Source: Fibrobacter succinogenes
GTDB lineage: Bacteria > Fibrobacterota > Fibrobacteria > Fibrobacterales > Fibrobacteraceae
Length of the DNA: 45,992 nucleotides
Direction: 5' to 3'
NCBI RefSeq assembly: GCF_902779965.1
Contig: NZ_CACZDK010000027.1
Coordinates: forward strand, 1 to 45,992
Shown here: piece after piece, positions 21,144-31,642 of the stretch
Numbering within the stretch: position 1 is the stretch's first letter
Layout: each line of letters opens with the position of its first letter
Notes under the pieces: model-generated
Told to the model about the DNA's origin: nothing
The model's input: the letters and a program-made list of their open reading frames with translations, nothing else
Database searches by the model: none
Position numbers and translations under genes: made by a program

Positions 21144-24100
21144 TTACCCCTTCTTTATCACTTCCACAGTCAACTTATTGAAAGCTAGCTTTCCGCCTTC
21201 GCGCAGCTCTAGCGCTGCCCTGAATGTTGTGTCGTTCTTTTTGAACGGTTCAAGGATCGGCGTGGATTTGTTCTTTAAAAGCGTTTCGACTTCTTCGTCT
21301 TTAAATTCTCGCTGGAAAAACGCCTTGGGAATCCCGTAATTGCAGGCGGGGTTCATGCACACGTATGCCGCAAGCGTTTGCACTTCGCCGTTTGGCGTTT
21401 GCGTGGTCGTGCCGCTACGGAATCGCAGCTGGTCGCCGCAACAAGGGCAGGGGAGGTCTCTGTGGACAAATTCAAAATTCGTGCGACCGTCTTCGCCAAG
21501 CTTTAAGTAGGCATCGAAATCCGTTCCTTTCTTGCTTTTGAATCCGGTCAACAGTTCAGTTTTGCCGCCGGTGAGGAGCGCTTTGATATCTGCCACGCGG
21601 AGCTTTTTGCCTGCAACGGACTTGAACAGGGTAAAGTTACAAGCTGGGCAGAAAATGGCGTTTTTGTTTTCTTCGAGTTTCTTTTTGCAGAGCGGGCAGT
21701 TGAACTTGGTTTCGGTGCCGTGGAAATGCCCGTCGTTCTCGAAAGCGAATGTCGCTTTGAAATCCTTGTCCCAGACGATTTTTGCGTTGAAAGTCGTACC
21801 TTTCTTGGTCAAGAAGCCGCTGATGATTTCTGTTGTGCCGTTGCTGAAGAGTTCTGCGATTTCCGTGTCGCTCATGACATGCCCGGCAATCGTCTTGTAG
21901 AAAACGAAGTCGCAAGTTGGGGCGGTATCTGGCGTGAGCGTCGGGTCGCCGTTTTCGTTGTTCGAAGTCGTGACGTCGCTCCCTTCGCAAATCAGGCGGT
22001 TGCCGGAATCCAGCAATGTTTTGCCGCACTTGGGGCATTTATAATTGGTTGGCGTTTTGGCGCGGGCGTCATCGGAAAATTCAAAGCCGATGTTGCCGTC
22101 ATCGCCTAACGTGAGCGTGGCGCTGAATGTCGTTCCTTTTTTGCTCTTGAAACCGCTGAGCAAATCGGACTTGCCTGTTTTGAGGAGTGTCGCCATTTCG
22201 GCGTGGCTCAGTGTGCGGCCGGCAATCGTGTGGCCCGCCTTGAAGCCGCATTCTTCGTTTTTGCAGACATAGCCCCACGGCGCAATTTCGAGCGGACTGG
22301 AACATTTCGGGCAAGGAATCGCATCGGTGACGGTTTCGCGTTCGAACTGGCTTGCATATTTTTGGTGCAAATGTTCGAAAAGTTCTTTGACGTAATTCAC
22401 GATGCCGTCGCGGAATTCAATCGGCGTGAGTTTGCCTTTTTCGACTTGCGAAAGCTTGAATTCCCATTCGCCGGTCATTTCGGGCGATTTGACTTTCTCG
22501 TCCATGAGCGCGATGACTTCGCGTCCGCGCTGGGTGCTGACAAGGTAATTCTTTTGCGCTTCGATGAATCCGCGTTTTTTGAGCGTCTCGATGATGCCTG
22601 CTTGTGTGGCTGGCGTGCCGAGACCGCGTTCTTTCATGGCTTCGGCAAGTTCTTCGTTTTCGATTTGCTTGCCCGCCGTTTTCATTGCGGCAAGGAGCGT
22701 GGCTTCGGTAAAATACTTGGGCTTGCTCTTCTTTTTCTTTTGCAGTTCTAGGCTGTCGAAAGGAGCGTGGTCACCAACATTCCATTCCGGGAAAGTCTCA
22801 ACGATGTTCGTGATATCGTCGCTATCACCCTTGCCTTCGGCTGCCACGTCGTTATCGCTTTTTTTTCCTTTCGTCTTTCGTCTTTCGTCTTTCGTCTCTT
22901 TTGCGAGTGCACGGAAACCTAAATCTTCATTCCTCTTGAGTTTTAGCCTAAAGATTTCGGCGTTGGCGGCATCCAGCAGAACTTCCATTTCGCTCCAGAC
23001 ATACGGCTTAAGCCATGCCTGCACAAAGCGTTCCTTTGCGAGCTTGTAGATGTTCTCTTCCATCTCAGGGAGGTTTTGCGGATCTTCTCCCGTAGGGATG
23101 ATGGCAAAGTGGTCCGTGACTTTGCTGGAGTTGATGAAGACAAAGTTTTCGTTGCCGCCACGCATGACGGATTTTTCTTGCGGTGAGGCAAGTCTTTGGG
23201 CAAGCGCGTATGCTTCTTGCTGCATCGTGTCCGGCAAATATTGCGAGTCCGTACGCGGGTAGGTGAGCAACTTCTTTTCGTACAAGTTTTGTGCACAGTC
23301 GAGAACTTGCTGAGCACTGTATTTAAAACGCTTGTTGCCCTCTTTTTGCAGTTCCGTCAAGTCAAACGGTTTTTGCGGAAACTGCTTTTTCTGCTGAATG
23401 TCGATTTTTGCAATCGTCGCTTCTTCCGGCGGTGAGCATTTGTCTATAACAGCTTGCGCCGGCTCTTCTTTCTCGAAAATCGCAACTTTTAAATTGCTGC
23501 CGAGATCCTTCGACTTCGCTTGCGCTTCGCTCAGGATGACACCATTTGCTTCTGCCACACCGCTCGCTTCACTTGAAACGTTCTTAGGCACTTCGGCAAG
23601 CTCAGTGGCCTTATCCGGCTGCGGTTTCTCTCCTCTTTCGTCTTTCGTCAAGGTTGGTGAGCCTGCCGAACCACGTCTATCGTCTAATAACTGTGCCTGA
23701 AATCCTTTCCACGTTCCGACTACACTGTAATAAAACAGTTCCTTGAACTGCTCGACAATTGCATCGCGTTCCACGACCAGATTCAGCGTCGGCGTTTGCA
23801 CTCGTCCCACAGAAATCATCTTTCCGCGCCCGGCGGTGAGCGTGTAAGCGCGCGTCGCATTCAGCCCGACCATCCAGTCGGCACGCTGGCGGAGCCTTGC
23901 CGCATAGCTCAAGTTCAAACGCTCTGTAGCATCTTCCAGATTCTTCCAAGCCTTGTCCAAATCCTTCGCCACATAGCTGTTCACCCACAAACGCTTGATC
24001 TGCTTTTTGCGGAAGTCCGGCGTGTAGTCGAGAATCAAGTCGAAAATCAAATTACCTTCACGGCCCGCGTCCGCGCCGTTCACAAGAACATCCGCCCTTG

Positions 24101-24389
24101 CCATCATATCGCGCACAACCGCGAGCTGCTTTCGTGTGCTCTCAATTTCCATCAACTTGAATTTTTCGGGCAAAAGTGGCAAGTTCGAAAGCCGCCAACC
24201 GCCCTCGAAACCGGGATAGGCGTCCAGCGGAGCAAGCGTAATCAAGTGACCCACGCACCACGTGATGCAATGGTTCTTGCCGATCAGGCACCCGTCGCCT
24301 TGCGTAAACTTTTCACCCTCAATACGCTCCAGCATTGGCTTGTAATGTTGGTTTGCAACGGAAGGTTTTTCGGCGACGAGTAAAATCAT
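21144..24389 (-). CDS. topB: DNA topoisomerase III with extended zinc-ribbon tail and repeat-derived inserts
   Basis: A 1081-residue type IA topoisomerase. The TOPRIM domain has LLVAEKPSVA and VLVNGADAGREGNLIFDL; the active-site Tyr is in LLTYPRTDSQYL; RLRQRADWMVGLNATRAYT is typical of TopB. After the core come at least four zinc-ribbon modules (for example CPKCSSPLEIAPWGYVC, CPKCGKTL, CPLCKKKLEENKNAIFCPAC, CPCCGDQL), making it longer than the E. coli form (about 650 residues). Two low-complexity inserts are unusual: about residues 235-300 (RRGSAGSPTLTKDERGE, and later NGVILSEAQAKSKDLGS) and about 490-525 (KETKDERRKTKGKK). Both come from dispersed DNA repeats. A second copy of its first 80 codons lies at 28173-28428. 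Confidence 0.93.
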   Translation of the reverse strand: MILLVAEKPSVANQHYKPMLERIEGEKFTQGDGCLIGKNHCITWCVGHLITLAPLDAYPGFEGGWRLSNLPLLPEKFKLMEIESTRKQLAVVRDMMARADVLVNGADAGREGNLIFDLILDYTPDFRKKQIKRLWVNSYVAKDLDKAWKNLEDATERLNLSYAARLRQRADWMVGLNATRAYTLTAGRGKMISVGRVQTPTLNLVVERDAIVEQFKELFYYSVVGTWKGFQAQLLDDRRGSAGSPTLTKDERGEKPQPDKATELAEVPKNVSSEASGVAEANGVILSEAQAKSKDLGSNLKVAIFEKEEPAQAVIDKCSPPEEATIAKIDIQQKKQFPQKPFDLTELQKEGNKRFKYSAQQVLDCAQNLYEKKLLTYPRTDSQYLPDTMQQEAYALAQRLASPQEKSVMRGGNENFVFINSSKVTDHFAIIPTGEDPQNLPEMEENIYKLAKERFVQAWLKPYVWSEMEVLLDAANAEIFRLKLKRNEDLGFRALAKETKDERRKTKGKKSDNDVAAEGKGDSDDITNIVETFPEWNVGDHAPFDSLELQKKKKSKPKYFTEATLLAAMKTAGKQIENEELAEAMKERGLGTPATQAGIIETLKKRGFIEAQKNYLVSTQRGREVIALMDEKVKSPEMTGEWEFKLSQVEKGKLTPIEFRDGIVNYVKELFEHLHQKYASQFERETVTDAIPCPKCSSPLEIAPWGYVCKNEECGFKAGHTIAGRTLSHAEMATLLKTGKSDLLSGFKSKKGTTFSATLTLGDDGNIGFEFSDDARAKTPTNYKCPKCGKTLLDSGNRLICEGSDVTTSNNENGDPTLTPDTAPTCDFVFYKTIAGHVMSDTEIAELFSNGTTEIISGFLTKKGTTFNAKIVWDKDFKATFAFENDGHFHGTETKFNCPLCKKKLEENKNAIFCPACNFTLFKSVAGKKLRVADIKALLTGGKTELLTGFKSKKGTDFDAYLKLGEDGRTNFEFVHRDLPCPCCGDQLRFRSGTTTQTPNGEVQTLAAYVCMNPACNYGIPKAFFQREFKDEEVETLLKNKSTPILEPFKKNDTTFRAALELREGGKLAFNKLTVEVIKKG
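22864..22902 (-). repeat. Tandem CGTCTTT heptamer array inside topB
   Basis: About four copies of CGTCTTT in a row (plus strand) encode the KETKDERRKTKGKK stretch. A 7-bp period shifts codon phase, so gain or loss of single units would break the frame. The unit resembles the GACGAAAGA repeats seen elsewhere in the window. Confidence 0.6.
23504..23540 (-). repeat. In-frame GTCATCCTGAGC...GGATC repeat inside topB
   Basis: On the minus strand GTCATCCTGAGCGAAGCG continues to a closing GAAGGATC and encodes VILSEAQAKSKDL (about residues 284-296). The same repeat lies between genes at 38788-38829 and, in the same reading frame, in the aminotransferase (37791-37815) and pectate lyase (42578-42606). 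Confidence 0.7.
23636..23692 (-). repeat. In-frame dispersed repeat inside topB (GACGAAAGA + 24-bp GGTTGG element)
   Basis: It contains 24 bp (23650-23673) identical to 35563-35586, flanked by GACGAAAGA and TTAGACGATAGACG units. It encodes LLDDRRG and SAGSPTLTKDERGE in a low-complexity segment of topoisomerase III that is absent from the family core. Confidence 0.65.
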
Positions 24390-24538
24390 AATTGCCGAAA
24401 AGATATAAAAATTTTGGATGGAACTATGTGAATATGGTTCCTTGTAATTTGAATGTTTGTTTTGTTTTGATTGTGAAGAATTGTAAAAAAATTATTTGTG
24501 AAATAAACTATATTAGAATAAACTGAATAGAGTGAAAA

Positions 24539-27169
24539 ATGCGCTATTGTTATGAATTTGTTTTTTTGTTAGCTTTCTTTGGCTTTGTGTATGCTCAATC
24601 ACCGATTTCTGTAGAAGCTTATGATGAGCAAGGGAATAATCAAAGTCAAATAACGCTTCGATTAAAACTGATAAACAATACTTCAGATACGCTATATAAT
24701 ATCCATGCAAGATATTTTTTGAATAACGAAAAAAATAGGACTTTGAAAATCGCTCCGTACTATATGGAGGGCGTTTCGGTGTCGTTAGATACAATTGAAG
24801 ATTATCTTGCTGTAAAGATAAGCTTTCCTGTAATTGCTCCGGGGGTATTTCCAAATTCTAGTGGGATAAGCCTCGGTATGAGGTATAGTGATGACAGTTC
24901 ATTTCATAAACAGGGAAATTATAGCTATCCTATAGGAAGTAGTTTCACTGAAACAGATCGAATTCCGGTTTATTATGGCGATGTTATTTTAGTTGGCTTT
25001 GCTCCAGGTATACTACCCGATGCGAATCCTATATCAATGGTTTCTGGCTCTGAGCTTTTGCTTGATTCTACTAAGCGAGTACGCTTTGCGTGGCGTGAGG
25101 TTGAAGGTGCGAATAGTTACAAATTGACTGTTCTTTCGGCAACGGATTCCAGCATGTTAATACAAAAGGAAACGGAAAAGACTCGTGTAGATACTGCATT
25201 AAATGAAGGTGATTATTTTTGGCGAGTAGAGTCATCTGAATTTGTCGTTGGCAATGGATTTTGGGATAAAGTTGTTGATTTTACAAAACAGGCTTGGAAT
25301 AGTGTTCATACTTTTTTGGATAAAATAATTGTTGATGGTGTAAATCCTTTAATAAGAACTCCACTTGCTGCACGAAAGGATACTTATCTTTTAGATGTAA
25401 AATGGGGGGAAATGTCTATCGTTCGTGAATGGGATAGACCGCATTTACATCATGAGCTTTATGACGAAGAAGAAAGTTACCGTTGTTGGGCTGTTGGTGC
25501 ACAAATGCTTAATCATTATTACAAAGGCAATGTAACTCAAGATGAAATAAAACTAAAATTTAAAAGTAATCGTAATTTGTTAGTCTTTAAAGATTCCGTT
25601 TCTTCAGTGATTCTCGGAGCTTTTTTACATAGTTATCAAGGCGCTATGAGTACAGATAGTTTTGAAACTGTATTGTATTGGACTTTAAATTCCAATGTAA
25701 CTTTAAATAAAAATAATCGCTCTCCAACAGAATCGGAAGTGAAATTATTTCTTAAAGACTCTGTTCCATTATATATATGGACTCATACGCATGTCGAAAT
25801 TCTTGATGCTTATAAAAAAACTCTAGATGGAAATTTTTTTGTACGAGTTGTTAATACGGATAACAATGGTGATACCGCATGGGTGTCTTTGGATTCTGCT
25901 AAAATTGAAGGTTTTATGGCTCCTCAAGTTGTAGGGCCTGTTCGAATGAGTGACTCTTTAATACATAAGGACTCTGACGGAGACGGTCTTATGGATTATG
26001 ATGAATTATACCGTTTTGGTACAGATTCTACAAAGTATGATTCTGATGGAGATAGTATTAGCGATAAAATTGAAATAATGTCTTATACGATTTTGGAATC
26101 TTTATATGGTGATTCTTCTAAAGTAAGCAAAGGAGTAGATGCTTTACAATTTGCTGATGTTGATAAAGACAACTATAGAGCGGAACATGATTTAGATTCT
26201 GATGGCGGCGGTGTTAGCGATGGCAAAGAGGATTTGAATTTTAATGGAATGCAGGATAATGCGGAATCTAGTCCCTATAATGCCGATGATGATTTCTTTA
26301 TTGCAGAGCCAATTTTAGATATTCCCGATACATTTACCATATATGCGTTAAATGAGTTGCGCATAAACGATGGTGTTAAATGTAGCAAGGCTGATAGAGA
26401 AGTTCTTGGTTCTTTACGTAATGTAGCTTGTTCCGTAGCTTCAGAATCACAAAAAATTGAGTATGCTGTGAATATTGGTAGAAGTGTTATTGTAAACCAT
26501 ATTGCTTCTAAAGGAGGTGTTTTTTTAAGAGATCGTTCTATTGCAGTCGCTCCCATAAAGATATATTCATTACCTGATCTGTCTTTAAATCCGTTTGCTC
26601 AAGGACGAGCTCGAATTAGATCTGTATCTATGTGCTTGTTGCAGTCTTTGTGGCCATATAAAGTTGAAAATATTTCCTCTCTGCTAAATGTTGGAAATTC
26701 TTTCAAAGAAATATTCTACAAAGAAATCTATACATTAAAGAATGGCGATACCTTTAAAAGTTTGAAGGTTCATCCTGGTGGAAAGTTGCTAATTGAGCCT
26801 GGTGAGATGTTTGTTGGCGATATTCAACTTGAATCTGGAAGTAGAATCCAGTTTACAGAACCTGGAAGAAAAACAGTAATTCATGCAAATGGTTCAGTTA
26901 TATGGAGGTCTTGGACTTTAAATGATGATAAAATACAAGTTGCTAAGGGCTTTAAGCTTATTCAACATAGTTCAGAGACCATGTTTGTTGAAGGACAATG
27001 GGCTGGAACTATACTTGCTCCGAATGCAGATTTAGTGCTTGGACAATCAAATAAGACTCTTTACGGTCGATTTTTAGGACGAAATGTTGATGTTCACCAA
27101 TATTCTTCAGTTTACAATGTCTATTTTGATCCTGAAACAATAATGAACTTAGTTTTTAAAATGGAGTAG
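24539..27169 (+). CDS. Large secreted multidomain protein with predicted cysteine-peptidase domain and TSP3 repeats
   Basis: 876 residues with signal peptide CYEFVFLLAFFGFVYAQ. Region 1 (about 20-145) is a beta-sandwich-like domain. A fibronectin-like segment follows (FAWREVEGANSYKLTVLSA). Region 3 (about 310-450) resembles C39/papain-like peptidases: Cys316 in SYRCWAVGAQMLNHYY, His416/418 in THTHVEILDAY, and Asn/Asp in VNTDNNGDTAW. Two thrombospondin type-3-like Ca2+ loops follow (DSDGDGLMDYDEL, DSDGDSISDK; about 478-512) and a third is probable near DSDGGGVSDG. The C-terminal 250 residues form a beta-repeat region (GTILAPNADLVLGQ, YGRFLGRNVDV) reminiscent of choice-of-anchor-A domains. It is much more AT-rich than its neighbours and lies in a probable acquired island. 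It is coupled to the next gene. Substrate is unknown. Confidence 0.6.
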   Translation: MRYCYEFVFLLAFFGFVYAQSPISVEAYDEQGNNQSQITLRLKLINNTSDTLYNIHARYFLNNEKNRTLKIAPYYMEGVSVSLDTIEDYLAVKISFPVIAPGVFPNSSGISLGMRYSDDSSFHKQGNYSYPIGSSFTETDRIPVYYGDVILVGFAPGILPDANPISMVSGSELLLDSTKRVRFAWREVEGANSYKLTVLSATDSSMLIQKETEKTRVDTALNEGDYFWRVESSEFVVGNGFWDKVVDFTKQAWNSVHTFLDKIIVDGVNPLIRTPLAARKDTYLLDVKWGEMSIVREWDRPHLHHELYDEEESYRCWAVGAQMLNHYYKGNVTQDEIKLKFKSNRNLLVFKDSVSSVILGAFLHSYQGAMSTDSFETVLYWTLNSNVTLNKNNRSPTESEVKLFLKDSVPLYIWTHTHVEILDAYKKTLDGNFFVRVVNTDNNGDTAWVSLDSAKIEGFMAPQVVGPVRMSDSLIHKDSDGDGLMDYDELYRFGTDSTKYDSDGDSISDKIEIMSYTILESLYGDSSKVSKGVDALQFADVDKDNYRAEHDLDSDGGGVSDGKEDLNFNGMQDNAESSPYNADDDFFIAEPILDIPDTFTIYALNELRINDGVKCSKADREVLGSLRNVACSVASESQKIEYAVNIGRSVIVNHIASKGGVFLRDRSIAVAPIKIYSLPDLSLNPFAQGRARIRSVSMCLLQSLWPYKVENISSLLNVGNSFKEIFYKEIYTLKNGDTFKSLKVHPGGKLLIEPGEMFVGDIQLESGSRIQFTEPGRKTVIHANGSVIWRSWTLNDDKIQVAKGFKLIQHSSETMFVEGQWAGTILAPNADLVLGQSNKTLYGRFLGRNVDVHQYSSVYNVYFDPETIMNLVFKME

Positions 27170-27171
27170 TT

Positions 27172-27951
27172 ATGAAAAAATTATTGCTTGTTATTGCCGT
27201 TCTCTCAGAGGCTTTGTTTGCCATCTCTCCCAAAACAATGGAGATTGTTTTTAAATCCCTGAAAATAGATGACTCGAAAATAAAAGAAGACTTATGTGAT
27301 TCAATTTATTCGGGATTGCCAAAAGCGGAAACTTCAAGATACCGTGCTTTATGTGTGTCAGTTTACGATATTATTGAATACAATTCCCCTATAGATTATT
27401 CTGTTCTTTTCACTTATGAATCAGGTGGTTTTACCCTGAGAAGGCAAAATCAAACATGTAAGAATCCAATTTTGAGTGATGACGCTGAGGGAACTCCAGG
27501 GACTGCTCAATTTAGCGAAGTTTTGTTTGCCGAATTGATGCGATTGCAGAAATATGGCGTTATACAAAATGATCGGGATTCTCTGGAAACTTTTTTATTT
27601 GGTGAAATAGCAAAAATGAAAGAAGCTTCATTTTGTGAGGATATTGATTTAGTTGTTTATGATGAAGAATTCGGTGCTAAAAGACCTGATATGGGTGAAC
27701 AAGGTTGCTGTTCTTTAGTGAAGTCGCCTAGTGCCTTGCCTGTGCAAGTCCGGTTTCCTTCATATATTCGCGTTTCTAAAATTATTGAAAACAGATTTTT
27801 TCTGTCGAATGCAAAAATTGGCTCTAATTTTGCTTTATTCGATATGAATGGCAAAGTGCTAAAACAAGGGGTTGTGCTGTCAAAAATTATTCAAGCGCCT
27901 ATGCTTCCTGCTGTTTTAAAAATTCAGAACCAAATTATGATGTTGAAGTAA
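27172..27951 (+). CDS. Secreted hypothetical protein, partner of the preceding gene
   Basis: 259 residues with a clear signal peptide (MKKLLLVIAVLSEALFA). The mature part has several Cys and a helical N-terminal half; the last 60 residues (FFLSNAKIGSNFALFDMNGK, then VLKQGVV) look like a C-terminal sorting module similar to type IX secretion tails. No family is recognised. The start lies 2 bp after the stop of the large secreted protein, with GGAG at the junction, so the two are translationally coupled and probably act together. AT-rich. Confidence 0.6.
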   Translation: MKKLLLVIAVLSEALFAISPKTMEIVFKSLKIDDSKIKEDLCDSIYSGLPKAETSRYRALCVSVYDIIEYNSPIDYSVLFTYESGGFTLRRQNQTCKNPILSDDAEGTPGTAQFSEVLFAELMRLQKYGVIQNDRDSLETFLFGEIAKMKEASFCEDIDLVVYDEEFGAKRPDMGEQGCCSLVKSPSALPVQVRFPSYIRVSKIIENRFFLSNAKIGSNFALFDMNGKVLKQGVVLSKIIQAPMLPAVLKIQNQIMMLK

Positions 27952-28172
27952 ATTTAATAGATGAGGGCGCGTAAAAGCTTTTTGCCTGCTGTTATATCAT
28001 TTTTTTAGAATTTATGGGGAGTAATCAAAAGTAATATATGTTTATACACATATTCAATGTGAGGTTACTTATGCTGGCAGTCGTGGATGCGCTCCTTATG
28101 CAGAGCTCACTGACAAGCCGGTCTCCTTTAGAATCGAGGGTTATAATATCCCGAAGCCGGTTATTGCGTTCT
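27952..28172. other. Spacer with a coding-like plus-strand remnant
   Basis: From about 28009 a plus-strand frame without any start codon reads CEVTYAGSRGCAPYAELT, then DKPVSFRIEGYNIPKPV, and runs into the topB fragment, where it stops (about 28245). Its composition looks like real protein, so it may be the tail of a gene broken when the island formed. No family is recognised. Confidence 0.25.
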
Positions 28173-28428
28173 TTTCCATCAACTTGAATTTTTCGGGCAA
28201 AAGCGGCAAGTTCGAAAGTCGCCAACCGCCCTCGAAACCGGGGTAGGCGTCCAACGGCGCTAGCGTAATCAAATGACCCACGCACCACGTGATGCAATGG
28301 TTCTTGCCGATCAGGCATCCGTCGCCTTGCGTAAACTTTTCACCCTCAATGCGCTCCAACATTGGCTTGTAATGCTGATTGGCAACAGAAGGTTTTTCGG
28401 CGACGAGTAAAATCATAATTGCCGAAAA
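28173..28428 (-). pseudogene. Truncated second copy of the topB 5' end
   Basis: 256 bp align without gaps to 24146-24401 with about 14 substitutions. The copy keeps the ATG (28416) and encodes the first 80 residues of topoisomerase III with no amino-acid change, then leaves homology (LMEKNAITGFGIL and stop), giving a 91-codon frame. It lacks most of TOPRIM and the active-site Tyr, so it cannot be a topoisomerase. The homology includes 12 bp upstream of the ATG (AATTGCCGAAAA) and ends abruptly at both sides. It lies in the same orientation as topB, so the two copies form direct repeats around the AT-rich island. Confidence 0.85.
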
Positions 28429-28470: not shown

Positions 28471-29076
28471 TTATTGTAGAATCGCTTTAGCCCATTCCGG
28501 GATGTTTTCTATGTATTTTTTGATAAGCTTCCCATCTGATAATCGAAAAAGCAAACTAGCATCAGATCCGTCAATGGAGTTGTCATAAACATATAAGCGG
28601 TCGATTGTAGATGCTATACGTTTGCAATTCAAAATTGACTTTTGATATCTTGAGATGATTTTTGAAATGGGAACATCGTGACCACCGCATATAACTCTAT
28701 TTGCTATTCTTGAAGCATTGATAGATGGATGGTTTGTAGCGACAAAGAAAATACGAATGAAATATCCTTGTTGCTTTGCTTTTTGAACAAAATTTATTTT
28801 TTGTTCCGAAGAAAAAACGCTTTCAAAAATTATGTTCTGTCGTTCTTTTAAACAGTGTTCTCGCCATTCGTCGCAAAATTGAGCTGCTTTAAGCACCGCT
28901 TCAGGTGAGTTCCAGTTTCCAAATTTTTCTTGGGCTACATTATCGGGATTGATGTAAACTGCATTCTCCAGCCATTCGTGCCGAAGAATTTTAGAAGTTA
29001 TGGTTGTTTTGCCCGAACCATTAGGCCCTGCAACAATTATGAGTACGGGGCGATGTTGTGTTGTTTCCGTAGTCAT
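28471..29076 (-). CDS. Zeta-toxin-like P-loop kinase
   Basis: 201 residues. The Walker A motif is VAGPNGSGKTTITSKIL near the N-terminus, followed by NPDNVAQEKFG, FESVFSSEQKINFV and FIRIFFVATNHPSINASRIANRV, an arrangement typical of zeta/PezT-like kinases. Zeta toxins phosphorylate UDP-N-acetylglucosamine and block wall synthesis; related stand-alone kinases have other substrates. It lies one base after a 57-codon gene with its own SD and an operator-like dyad, which fits a toxin-antitoxin pair. Adjacent to the topB fragment, in the AT-rich island. Confidence 0.75.
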   Translation of the reverse strand: MTTETTQHRPVLIIVAGPNGSGKTTITSKILRHEWLENAVYINPDNVAQEKFGNWNSPEAVLKAAQFCDEWREHCLKERQNIIFESVFSSEQKINFVQKAKQQGYFIRIFFVATNHPSINASRIANRVICGGHDVPISKIISRYQKSILNCKRIASTIDRLYVYDNSIDGSDASLLFRLSDGKLIKKYIENIPEWAKAILQ

Positions 29077-29452: not shown

Positions 29453-31642
29453 CTACAAATCATCTTCTAATTCTCCGAGATTTAAATTGGGCGTACTGTT
29501 ATTAGGAAAAGGAAATCGAGGACGGGGCATGGGTTTTGGAAAGCCTGCATCATCCAAGATACGTTTACGGTTGGATTCGAAGCGGTCACTTTGGATAGCT
29601 CTCTGCATGAACGAAGCGTAATCTTCTATAGCCTGACTGGCCTTGTCTAACGTCGGACGTAATGCGTTACGCTTGCTTTCCACACGTGGCGTCGGTAACT
29701 GGCTTGCAAAATCCAAGGCAAGAACCTGAACGGAGTCGAACAGGCTCTGCATTGCATCGTAAGCCTGACGAGCACTGTCGCGAGAAGCGACGGACACAAT
29801 TGGCTGTTCCGTGCGATTTTCTGCTTGATTCAAAGCTTCAAGGGCGTCCTGATAATTCTTCTTTATGTAGTTGCAGTAACCCATAACGAGGTATGCTTCA
29901 GATACGAGGAAAGATTCAGGAAGGTTGTTTATAATCCATTTGGCGTACTTTATAGCTTCATCCGGCTTGTTGGCCTTGATAAAGGCCCATGCGATACCGA
30001 GCATCGCTTCGTCGAACACCGGAGAATCCTTCTGCACCAGGCCATACATCCGAGCGGCGGCTGCAATGTCCGGCTTTTCACCAGAGAAGAATAGGTGACC
30101 GAGCTTCACCTTAGCTGCATTCTGTATGTCACGTTCGGACTTGTTGGAAACCGGCTGTTCCGTAATAGAGCGGAAACAGTTCTCGGCTTCGTCAAACTTG
30201 CTCATTCGACTGTTAGCGATGCCCATGGTGTAACGGGCGTAGAGATAGTTTGCGTTACCCGGAGGGATGGATGCGTGCAGGTCAATGGATTCTTGATAGA
30301 GGCCCTGTTCGAACTTGATCTGGCCGGCAACGTAGTCAGCGTCAGCCTTCGCATCGCTTTTGCCGAACTTCTGAGCGATGGTCTGGTATATGGCCATCGC
30401 TTCTTTGTACTTGCCTTCCTTATAGTTGATGTTCATCAACTGGAAGTGATACTTGGCGATTTGGTCACTTTGCGGATAGCGCTTGATGGCGTCGCGGTAA
30501 ATTTCCCTAGCCGCTTTGTGCATACGGAGGTTTTCAAAGGACTTTGCCTCGTAGAAAGCGGCCTGGTCCACAAGGCGAAATGTTGGGTACTTCGTTTGGA
30601 TTTCACCAAAGGCGTATGCAGCGTCCAAAAACTGACGGTTCAAGTAAAGGCTCTTTGCTGCATAATAGTCGTTTTCAGGTTGGATTATCAAACGGCGATA
30701 ACGTTCTTCGCCGACCTTCTCTTCGCGAGTATCACCGAATCGGGTCGTGAACTTGACTGCCCACACAAAGCCGCGGTTCTTTTTAGCCCAAAGATCGTCG
30801 TGAGACATTTCGAGATCAAGAGCGAGGTAACGGAAGATGCTCAAGTCCTTGAAATTAATTGTCGCTCCGAGGACCGGATTGCCATCCTTCGTGTAGCGAG
30901 CGCGAACGCCGAGGTGAGGAAAAAGATAATAGGTCAAGGAAAAGCTCATTTCGAGGTCGCAACCCTTGCCATCTTTAGAATCGTGGATGAGGTCCAAAAT
31001 GGAGAATTCGGCTTTGAATTCGAGGAGACGGTTGAATCCGCGATAGAACAAAGAGAGGTTCAAGTTCGTCGGAATTTTGTAAGCGTCATCAGCTTCGTCA
31101 ACAATCGGAGCGAGGAGGTTCTGGATGCTCGCGCCAATGAGCAAGTAACCGTACTTTGATGATGCAAGCGGGTTCCAGCTTAAACCCGCATCAGCATTAA
31201 CCTTGAGCTGATAGTTTTTATCAAACTGGTTGATGTAAAGCACATCGAAGTTGACGCCAAGAGATAGCAAGTGGAAAAGTCTGTACGCGTAACCGAATTG
31301 AGCGGCTATTTCGCCATAAGATTCGCCATCTTCAAATGGAGCGCCTTTTTCAAAAAGGGATATGCCCAAAGTGTGCTTGTAGTCAATCGGGTACGTCAAG
31401 CTGACGTATTCCTGGCTAGCTTCGCCACCAGTGGAGCTAAAGAATGCAACACTGAATTCGAGCTGATCGGCTTCAGAAATACCAGCTGGGTTCACATACA
31501 TCGCGGTGTTACCGCCAAATTCTGCAAACCAATCGTTCTGCTGATACTGATTCGGCGTGTCGGTGGCCTTTGCAAACAAAGAAGTGCAGGCTACGGCAAG
31601 TCCGATAGCGGCCGCCTTGATGAAATTAGTACGCAACACCAT
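29453..31642 (-). CDS. PorV/PorQ-like outer membrane barrel fused to TPR repeats
   Basis: 729 residues. A signal peptide (AAAIGLAVACTSLFAKA) leads into about 300 residues of amphipathic beta-strands with the PorV-family marker GGNTAMYVNPAGISEADQLE and repeated aromatic strand ends. From about residue 325 to 600 it is helical TPR sequence (for example YYAAKSLYLNRQFLDAAYAF, YNEGKYKEAM-like repeats, YIKKNYQDALEALNQAE). A Pro-rich tail ends the protein. PorV proteins shuttle type IX cargo or sit in the outer membrane; the TPR part would face the periplasm. It fits the T9SS-like tails on the enzymes in this window. A -35/-10 pair lies upstream (31706-31711, 31683-31688). Confidence 0.7.
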   Translation of the reverse strand: MVLRTNFIKAAAIGLAVACTSLFAKATDTPNQYQQNDWFAEFGGNTAMYVNPAGISEADQLEFSVAFFSSTGGEASQEYVSLTYPIDYKHTLGISLFEKGAPFEDGESYGEIAAQFGYAYRLFHLLSLGVNFDVLYINQFDKNYQLKVNADAGLSWNPLASSKYGYLLIGASIQNLLAPIVDEADDAYKIPTNLNLSLFYRGFNRLLEFKAEFSILDLIHDSKDGKGCDLEMSFSLTYYLFPHLGVRARYTKDGNPVLGATINFKDLSIFRYLALDLEMSHDDLWAKKNRGFVWAVKFTTRFGDTREEKVGEERYRRLIIQPENDYYAAKSLYLNRQFLDAAYAFGEIQTKYPTFRLVDQAAFYEAKSFENLRMHKAAREIYRDAIKRYPQSDQIAKYHFQLMNINYKEGKYKEAMAIYQTIAQKFGKSDAKADADYVAGQIKFEQGLYQESIDLHASIPPGNANYLYARYTMGIANSRMSKFDEAENCFRSITEQPVSNKSERDIQNAAKVKLGHLFFSGEKPDIAAAARMYGLVQKDSPVFDEAMLGIAWAFIKANKPDEAIKYAKWIINNLPESFLVSEAYLVMGYCNYIKKNYQDALEALNQAENRTEQPIVSVASRDSARQAYDAMQSLFDSVQVLALDFASQLPTPRVESKRNALRPTLDKASQAIEDYASFMQRAIQSDRFESNRKRILDDAGFPKPMPRPRFPFPNNSTPNLNLGELEDDL

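What the first reader, a model, noticed from the sequence alone, without database searches (positions are those of the whole stretch)
24539..27951. Secreted protein combining a predicted C39/papain-like peptidase, TSP3 calcium loops and a beta-repeat tail, coupled to a small secreted partner
Cys316, His416/418 and an Asn/Asp segment are placed as in papain-fold peptidases, but inside a large exported protein. Calcium loops and a choice-of-anchor-like tail follow. The next gene starts 2 bp later and encodes a secreted protein of no recognised family. The pair is AT-rich and island-borne, suggesting an effector, adhesin-processing or interbacterial role.
Basis: inference. Interest (0 to 1): 0.5.

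Follow-up and report, generated by a model that had tools for sequence, protein, structure and literature searches.

The report
Papain-fold protease with export-tagged partner
A fibre-digesting gut bacterium of the Fibrobacter group carries two neighbouring genes, a large exported protein with a papain-type cutting domain and a small partner that bears the outer-membrane export tag the large one lacks; the pairing recurs across the genus and may be a new way to export, or to restrain, a surface protease.

Summary
ORF1 (P1, 876 aa) has a predicted papain-like domain (pLDDT 82, pTM 0.81; best structural match staphopain, Z 14.1). Cys316 and His418 are invariant in 28 of 28 domain-bearing rows; His416 is not conserved. 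Calcium loops and an anchor-like tail follow. Of 23 named loci found, 22 are titled Fibrobacter and one Fibrobacteraceae.

The main addition is ORF2 (P2): its last 60 residues fold like a type IX secretion (T9SS) sorting domain, end in Lys and hold the FDMNG segment found essential in RgpB. P1 has no such domain. Of 41 usable P1 genes, 30 have a co-directional gene within 40 bp (27 with a sorting-type domain), 6 carry their own and have no close partner, 5 have neither (one has its partner 383 bp away). P2 genes also form arrays, usually with a variable core and near-constant sorting domain, often without P1, as inhibitor or immunity genes do.

Best reading: an exported papain-fold peptidase whose partner binds it, brings the T9SS signal in trans and probably restrains it. 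The fold is firm; P2's T9SS assignment is likely but misses the curated model; binding, inhibition and co-export are inference. No activity was tested.

The parts
24539..27169 (+). ORF1 / P1, 876 aa secreted multidomain protein
   Evidence: the ORF listing; matches in 31 of the 60 genomes
24611..24781 (+). P1 N-terminal domain, weakly CBM_3-like (aa 25-81)
   Evidence: Pfam below cut-off in the window protein; CBM_3 in 6 of 12 members at E<=0.1, best 5.5e-4
25031..25273 (+). P1 FN3-like domain (aa 165-245)
   Evidence: model strands and FN3 rows in Foldseek
25352..25948 (+). P1 papain-like peptidase domain (aa 272-470)
   Evidence: model and VIA-align to staphopain Z 14.1; Peptidase_C39_2 in 4 of 12 members, best 3.3e-6
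25484..25486 (+). codon of Cys316, presumed catalytic
   Evidence: 28 of 28 and 21 of 21 rows
25790..25792 (+). codon of His418, presumed catalytic
   Evidence: 28 of 28 and 21 of 21 rows
25853..25864 (+). Asn439-Asn442 segment, presumed third catalytic position
   Evidence: N439 23 of 28 and 18 of 21, N442 27 of 28 and 21 of 21
25970..26224 (+). P1 TSP3-like calcium loops (aa 478-562)
   Evidence: direct repeats, TSP3_bac weak, invariant Asp columns
26306..27142 (+). P1 tail, choice-of-anchor A / ice-binding-like (aa 590-868); its 3' end recurs as fragments in front of some orphan partners
   Evidence: sub-cut-off hits; fragments
27172..27951 (+). ORF2 / P2, 259 aa secreted partner
   Evidence: the ORF listing; matches in 65 of 167 genomes of the phylum, all in one family
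27763..27948 (+). P2 C-terminal T9SS type A-like sorting domain (aa 198-259)
   Evidence: seven strands, pLDDT 92-97; first three VIA rows and Foldseek ranks 2-5 are T9SS sorting domains
27838..27855 (+). FDMNGK (aa 223-228), same place and letters as the essential Lb3b4 segment of RgpB
   Evidence: sequence; PMC11285876 section 7; F, D, N, G invariant in the 21-row alignment A5, not in every partner elsewhere
24146..24401 (.). direct repeat copy 1: 5' end of the complete topoisomerase gene
   Evidence: the repeat finder
28173..28428 (.). direct repeat copy 2: truncated 5' end of the topoisomerase gene
   Evidence: the repeat finder; empty site in G001
28020..28172 (+). decayed toxin-antitoxin-like remnant at the end of the insert
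   Evidence: alignment to longer two-gene copies elsewhere; family names recalled

Best explanation
P1 is a Sec-exported surface protein with an apparently intact papain-fold (staphopain/C39-like) cysteine peptidase domain, flanked by adhesion-type modules, TSP3 calcium loops and an anchor-like tail. It lacks a T9SS sorting domain. P2 is a T9SS cargo: leader, a fast-diverging alpha/beta core, and a type A-like sorting domain. In the periplasm the P2 core binds P1, probably keeping the peptidase inactive, and the P2 sorting domain takes the complex through the SprA translocon and holds it at the surface; the sorting signal thus acts in trans. Shown here: predicted fold, conserved catalytic residues, sorting-type fold and motif in P2, T9SS genes in the genome, recurrent pairing, mutual exclusion of partner and own sorting domain. 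Inferred: physical binding, inhibition, co-export, proteolytic activity and substrate.
For: Papain fold and invariant Cys/His. P2 C-terminal domain: first VIA rows are T9SS chains 8glk (Z 7.9), 8gl8 (7.5), 8gl6 (6.8), with RgpB 5ag8 at 6.6; Foldseek ranks 2-5 are T9SS sorting domains. FDMNGK and the terminal Lys match the two motifs tested in RgpB/PorU. The genome has SprA_N over cut-off (0 of 14 controls), PorV_fam over cut-off twice and 41 TIGR04183 domains over cut-off, two of them only with their neighbours in the frame (1 of 14 controls over cut-off). Of 43 non-identical P1 genes holding peptidase and tail, window included, 36 have no C-terminal extension (30 with a co-directional gene within 40 bp) and 7 have one (0 with a close gene); Fisher p 5e-5. 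Without one row whose extension is a run of N and one at a contig end: 30 and 5 against 0 and 6, p 1e-4. 27 of the 30 close partners hit my sorting-domain profiles, which were partly built from the same proteins. Partner cores are of at least three sorts (22 P2 core, 4 PDZ, 2 other); the sorting-type domain is what 27 share. Two P1s with a fused sorting domain (L064, L111) are sisters of L058, whose partner is a PDZ protein.
Against: The rows are related, so the Fisher values are too small: the own-sorting-domain state needs only two changes on the tree. Four P1s have neither partner nor own domain (L008, L077, L081, L108), and two close neighbours (L088, L103) have no sorting domain. P2 does not reach TIGR04183 (no hit at E<=5; 2 of 21 members of A5, best 0.062), and profile-profile comparison with other sorting domains was modest (71% probability over 26 columns). 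P2's Z values are under 8 and tie in part with unrelated Ig-like rows at 6.0-6.8; Foldseek's first row is a DUF3244 protein and no row reaches E 0.001. The fused domain of L064/L111 is 33-34% identical to that of L058's PDZ partner, less than to L082's own domain (41-42%) or to the PDZ-type proteins of L063 and L056 (45-51%). P2 is in more genomes than P1 (65 against 40 of 167), so it has a role without P1. I recall no T9SS cargo exported in trans, and the listings showed none.
Confidence: 0.42

Rival explanations
1. P2 is first of all a cognate inhibitor or immunity protein of the P1 peptidase, as staphostatin is for staphopain or Spi for SpeB. P1 acts on neighbouring cells or on the cell's own surface; P2, shown on the surface by T9SS, protects. 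P1 leaves the cell by another route.
For: Best structural match is staphopain, whose inhibitor gene lies beside it; B. fragilis C10 proteases are co-transcribed with staphostatin-like inhibitors on mobile elements (PMC2873492, passages). P2 persists where P1 is absent: at one chromosomal slot 6 loci have P1 plus P2 (L066, L067, L071, L074, L105, L107) and 5 have P2 directly after the same flanking gene without P1 (L145, L149, L150, L151, L157); G158 has eight P2 matches and no peptidase match at 1e-6. P2 core identity follows P1 peptidase identity best over 21 pairs (Mantel rho 0.51; partial 0.41, 0 of 999 permutations), the P2 sorting domain does not (0.09).
Against: The core-peptidase link weakens without clade B (partial 0.21, 21 of 499) and fades with one row per clade (11 rows: rho 0.12, 102 of 499), where a tail region is slightly better (0.22, 43 of 499); inside clade A it is -0.19. 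Four of the five P2-only slots lie in genomes that hold P1 elsewhere (G019, G034, G029, G143). The core is replaced by PDZ or other modules in 6 of 30 pairs, and P1s with their own sorting domain have no close partner although an inhibitor would still be needed.
Confidence: 0.3
2. The P2 proteins are the working surface proteins (variable binders), and P1 is a peptidase-adhesin that processes or assembles them; the operon is a surface-coat module.
For: P2 cores vary while the sorting domain is nearly constant in most arrays (L144 0.46 against 0.94, L093 0.24 against 0.89), as in cassette variation; P2 also occurs alone.
Against: A shared cleavage site in P2 was not looked for; P1s with their own sorting domain exist without a close P2.
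Confidence: 0.13
3. P1 and P2 are two separately exported proteins that merely share an operon; no physical link.
For: P2 stands alone at a conserved place in two species (L049, L050); four P1s have no partner or own domain.
Against: A close co-directional gene in 30 of 41 usable P1 loci, spacing -44 to +18 bp, in several chromosomal contexts, and exclusion with own sorting domains.
Confidence: 0.15

Closest known systems
Staphopain (C47) - staphostatin and SpeB (C10) - Spi protease/inhibitor operons
   Same: papain fold, secreted, small gene directly beside it; staphopain is the best structural match
   Different: P1's domain sits inside a large adhesin-like protein; the partner is itself exported and has a T9SS-type sorting domain; no inhibitor homology found by sequence
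Peptidase_C39_2 / C70 (AvrRpt2-like) / C10 Pfam families
   Same: 4, 2 and 2 of 12 members hit these (best 3.3e-6, 9.6e-4, 2.7e-3)
   Different: the window protein itself hits none at E<=1
T9SS type A cargo (RgpB, NucA, RemA)
   Same: P2 C-terminal fold, FDMNG loop, terminal Lys
   Different: no curated model hit for P2; the presumed main cargo, P1, has no sorting domain in cis
T9SS type B substrate with cognate SprF-like shuttle (F. johnsoniae)
   Same: large surface protein often with a specific gene beside it that is needed for its export (PMC12618676, passages)
   Different: there the large protein has the signal and the neighbour is a PorP/SprF-like shuttle; here the neighbour has the signal
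Polymorphic toxin-immunity loci
   Same: orphan downstream genes, some with a piece of the large gene's 3' end in front; variable and constant parts
   Different: the variable gene is itself T9SS-tagged; the peptidase is internal and followed by a conserved tail; no toxicity known

Membership tests
Papain-like (clan CA) cysteine peptidase | papain-like fold | tested here: met
   AlphaFold pLDDT 82.2, pTM 0.81; staphopain Z 14.1, 151 aligned, rmsd 2.6; papain Z 9.2
Papain-like (clan CA) cysteine peptidase | Cys at helix start and His at strand start, conserved | tested here: met
   C316 = model residue 152, helix 152-163; H418 = 254, strand 255-264; 28 of 28 and 21 of 21
Papain-like (clan CA) cysteine peptidase | third residue Asn/Asp | tested here: inconclusive
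   N439 Asn in 23 of 28, N442 in 27 of 28; which one is catalytic cannot be told without coordinates
Papain-like (clan CA) cysteine peptidase | proteolytic activity | not testable with these tools
   needs purified protein
Peptidase_C39_2 (PF13529) | Pfam match of the window protein | tested here: not met
   no hit at E<=1; 4 of 12 members at E<=0.1
Staphopain C47 with staphostatin | partner is a staphostatin-like inhibitor | tested here: inconclusive
   no sequence hit; the partner core was not folded and searched alone
T9SS type A cargo (P2) | C-terminal compact seven-strand Ig-like domain | tested here: met
   strands 200-258; T9SS sorting domains head the VIA rows at Z 7.9-6.8, tied in part with other Ig-like rows
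T9SS type A cargo (P2) | Lb3b4 motif and C-terminal Lys motif | tested here: met
   FDMNGK 223-228 and ...MMLK against RgpB FDMNGRR and a conserved Lys; other partners vary, e.g. FSTNG or LDLNG, and end in K, R, N, H, E or F
T9SS type A cargo (P2) | TIGR04183 / PF18962 curated match | tested here: not met
   no hit for P2 at E<=5; TIGR04183 in 2 of 21 members, best 0.062; PF18962 in none
T9SS type A cargo (P2) | secretion depends on T9SS | not testable with these tools
   needs mutants
T9SS-bearing genome | SprA and PorV genes | tested here: met
   SprA_N and PorV_fam over cut-off
T9SS-bearing genome | PorU sortase gene | tested here: inconclusive
   PorU-like match 348 bits, E 4e-104, below the 420-bit cut-off
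Polymorphic toxin-immunity system | exchangeable toxin domain at the C-terminus | tested here: not met
   the peptidase is internal and followed by TSP3 loops and a conserved tail
Polymorphic toxin-immunity system | orphan immunity-like arrays | tested here: met
   arrays with tail fragments and without P1

The most novel reading that the evidence does not exclude
A T9SS route in which the sorting signal works in trans: the large peptidase has none, and a separately encoded, cassette-like, fast-varying partner binds it, silences it and carries it to the surface; orphan partner arrays then give immunity to siblings' peptidases, making this a T9SS-borne polymorphic protease system of Fibrobacter and its close kin.
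Probability: 0.25. Interest if true: 0.85.

Novelty: new variant of a known kind. Interest (0 to 1): 0.55.

Why it matters
T9SS cargo is recognised by a sorting domain on the same chain. If a partner can lend it, the known list of T9SS-exported proteins is too short and surface proteases of gut fibre degraders have been missed. The constant-signal, variable-core partner arrays also offer a testable case of how bacteria vary or restrain surface proteases.

Tried and rejected
Rejected: His416 as catalytic (not conserved). Rejected: the 150-bp block before the right-hand repeat as an RNA; no Rfam match at E<=1, and it aligns to a longer two-gene, toxin-antitoxin-like operon elsewhere. No sign of phage or plasmid carriage: no tblastn match to P1 at 1e-5 in 50,697 phage or 72,556 plasmid records. 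Weak: the profile search of the peptidase against PDB sequences gave only doubtful rows, with interpain A at E 0.44. Inconclusive: core-peptidase co-variation, clear over 21 related pairs, weaker without clade B, and not significant with 12 or 11 representatives, where the tail region 590-715 did better; absent inside clade A, and inside clade B the N-terminal domain did better. Regional divergence: the stretch between Cys and His and the FN3 domain are among the least conserved in two clades, but long loops may explain it. In 12 partner arrays the sorting domain was more alike than the core in 10 (L105 barely), not in L150 and L148. The first genome-contig scan, with P1 alone, found no relative. 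The second used a single pattern, GN[LV]TQDEI, so its taxonomic result holds for that pattern. L155 was not counted among P2-only slots because its contig ends there. No staphostatin or Spi appeared among P2's structure rows, which means little, as the core was not folded alone. The two AlphaFold jobs went to P1 165-475 and P2; the P1 N-terminus and tail were not folded.
Full report
What is there. Two + strand genes 2 bp apart: P1, 24539-27169, 876 aa, and P2, 27172-27951, 259 aa. Their GC is 35.5 and 35.8% against 49.2% for the rest of the window; P1 relatives are also GC-poorer than their surroundings in 19 of 20 titled loci. They lie in an insert, 24402-28172, between the complete topoisomerase gene (21144-24389, -; Topoisom_bac 1.1e-94) and a 256-bp copy of its 5' end, 95% identical. 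In G001 the topoisomerase gene runs straight into the zeta-toxin-like gene, so that is the empty site. The right end of the insert, 28020-28172, is a decayed toxin-antitoxin-like remnant.

P1. Pfam sees little in the window protein: TSP3_bac, CBM_3 and pAdhesive_15, all under cut-off; NCBIfam adds choice_anch_A under cut-off. Scanning 12 members (window and 11 relatives) gives Peptidase_C39_2 in 4 (best 3.3e-6), Peptidase_C70 in 2, Peptidase_C10 in 2, Lamin Tail Domain in 7 and CBM_3 in 6. AlphaFold of residues 165-475 with 20 relatives gave pLDDT 82.2 and pTM 0.81; Cys316 starts a helix and His418 stands just before a strand. VIA-align places staphopain first (Z 14.1, rmsd 2.6, 151 residues), then among others phytochelatin synthase (12.0), C39 peptidases of PCAT1 and ComA (11.9, 11.8), a papain-like toxin of a toxin/immunity pair (11.7), SpeB zymogen (9.8) and papain (9.2); Foldseek lists ZUFSP-type deubiquitinases and then staphopain. 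Cys and His are invariant in 28 of 28 and 21 of 21 domain-bearing rows. The domain is therefore papain-like and looks catalytically competent; activity and substrate are unknown.

P2. No family hit. Its model (pLDDT 72, pTM 0.51) has a confident C-terminal domain of seven strands, residues 200-258 (pLDDT 92-97), and a less sure core. The first VIA rows for that domain are T9SS substrate-complex chains (Z 7.9, 7.5, 6.8), with RgpB at 6.6; unrelated Ig-like rows stand at 6.0-6.8, and a Z under 8 can mean only a common arrangement. Foldseek puts a DUF3244 protein first and T9SS sorting domains at ranks 2-5, none at E<=0.001. What adds weight is the motif: FDMNGK lies between the third and fourth strand. 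In RgpB, replacing F-D-M-N-G-R-R there stopped secretion, and the C-terminal residues with a conserved Lys are needed too (PMC11285876, sections 6 and 7 read). F, D, N and G are invariant in the 21-row alignment A5; some other partners differ (FSTNG, LDLNG). The genome has SprA_N, PorV_fam and 41 TIGR04183 domains over the curated cut-offs; a PorU-like gene falls below its cut-off. F. succinogenes enzymes were already proposed to be T9SS cargo (PMC6851124, passages).

Recurrence. P1 matches: 31 of 60 genomes, a few of them N-terminal domain only; for the peptidase profile 40 of 167 genomes of the phylum, all in the same family but for one weak partial match. Of the 23 loci, 22 are titled Fibrobacter and one Fibrobacteraceae bacterium; the closest (49% over the domain) is F. 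intestinalis ATCC 43854. P2: 65 of 167 genomes, all in that family. Among 43 non-identical P1 genes with peptidase and tail, window included, 30 have a co-directional gene within 40 bp: 22 with a P2 core, 4 PDZ proteins, 2 other proteins with a sorting-type domain and 2 without one. 27 of 30 hit my sorting-domain profiles (partly built from them); L065 has the core but no recognisable sorting domain. FD[MLVI]NG occurs in the last 75 residues of 17 of 30 close partners against 16 of 460 other ORFs, which include orphan partners. Seven P1s have a C-terminal extension and none of these a close partner. One of the seven is a run of N and one other P1 ends at a contig edge; without both it is 30 and 5 against 0 and 6 (p 1e-4). 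One of the 5, L095, has its partner 383 bp away behind a repeated P1 tail fragment. On the tree the own-domain state needs two changes and all partner states ten, so these are few independent events. L064 and L111, with a fused sorting domain, are sisters of L058, whose partner is a PDZ protein. Their fused domain is 45-51% identical to that of the PDZ-type proteins of L063 and L056 but only 33-34% to that of L058's partner, and 41-42% to L082's own domain; in three whole genomes two of the six best non-self matches are PDZ partners. So a fusion from a PDZ-type partner is possible, not proven.

Arrays. P2 genes occur in tandem, some with a short piece of the P1 3' end in front, often without P1: six in L144 with three tail fragments, four in L145, three in L149. 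In most arrays the sorting domain is nearly constant while the core differs: L144 0.94 against 0.46, L149 1.00 against 0.56, L099 0.99 against 0.56, L093 0.89 against 0.24; L150 and L148 do not show this and L105 barely. At one slot six loci have P1 plus P2 (L066, L067, L071, L074, L105, L107) and five have P2 directly after the same flanking gene (L145, L149, L150, L151, L157); four of those five genomes hold P1 elsewhere. This resembles immunity arrays and is the strongest argument against P2 being only a carrier.

Which mechanism. The P2 core follows the P1 peptidase best over 21 pairs (rho 0.51; partial 0.41, 0 of 999), the sorting domain does not (0.09). Dropping clade A keeps it (partial 0.43, 8 of 499), dropping clade B weakens it (0.21, 21 of 499), and with one row per clade it fades (rho 0.12, 102 of 499); it is absent inside clade A. 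It is a hint, not a demonstration. I commit to a combined model: the core binds and restrains the peptidase, the sorting domain exports the pair. For the carrier part stand the exclusion between partner and own sorting domain, and exchange of partner cores with the sorting domain kept; for the inhibitor part, staphopain likeness and orphan arrays. Known parallels are staphopain-staphostatin, SpeB-Spi and B. fragilis C10-Bfi operons on mobile elements (PMC2873492, passages) and type B cargo with cognate shuttles (PMC12618676, passages).

Print. The rows listed (20 of 41 papers; 10 of 121; 12 of 24; 7 of 7) showed no paper on this pair or on a T9SS signal in trans; the library holds open-licence papers only, and I did not open the rest. 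PMC10202324 gave no passage on partners for the terms tried. PMC3482391 (passages) lists papain-like toxin families with Fibrobacteres among their hosts; whether one covers this domain was not tested. PMC9251779 (passages) describes piggyback transport for Tat and peroxisomes; its T9SS passages did not mention it.

Noticed in passing
24146-24401 and 28173-28428: 256-bp direct repeat of the topoisomerase 5' end around the insert; the copy next to the zeta gene is probably the native flank, so the 5' end was duplicated when the insert came in (inferred from G001).
   Followed up: partly
28020-28172: Remnant of a toxin-antitoxin-like gene pair whose longer copies lie in L129, L130, L131 and L132.
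   Followed up: yes
28471-29076 (-): Zeta-toxin-like P-loop gene beside the insert (Pfam 4.5e-18).
   Followed up: no
29453-31642 (-): TPR protein whose N-terminal part matches the PorV family weakly (E 1.5e-9, below cut-off).
   Followed up: no
L144 7698-14061: Six orphan P2 genes and three P1 tail fragments in a genome without a P1 peptidase match: near-constant sorting domain, variable core.
   Followed up: partly
L049 7365-8159, L050 9425-10132: Stand-alone P2 relatives (59-60% identical) at the same chromosomal place in two genomes, with no P1 relic found just upstream.
   Followed up: partly
L056 7124-9428: A P1 tail fragment, a P2-core partner and a protein resembling the PDZ-type partners in a row.
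   Followed up: partly
G040, G042, G057: Outside the genus the longer matches were to the P1 N-terminal domain (about aa 7-188), in large open frames.
   Followed up: no
L052, L058, L066 and others: Many P1 relatives have a Lamin Tail Domain before the FN3-like domain (LTD in 7 of 12 members at E<=0.1); the window protein has not.
   Followed up: no
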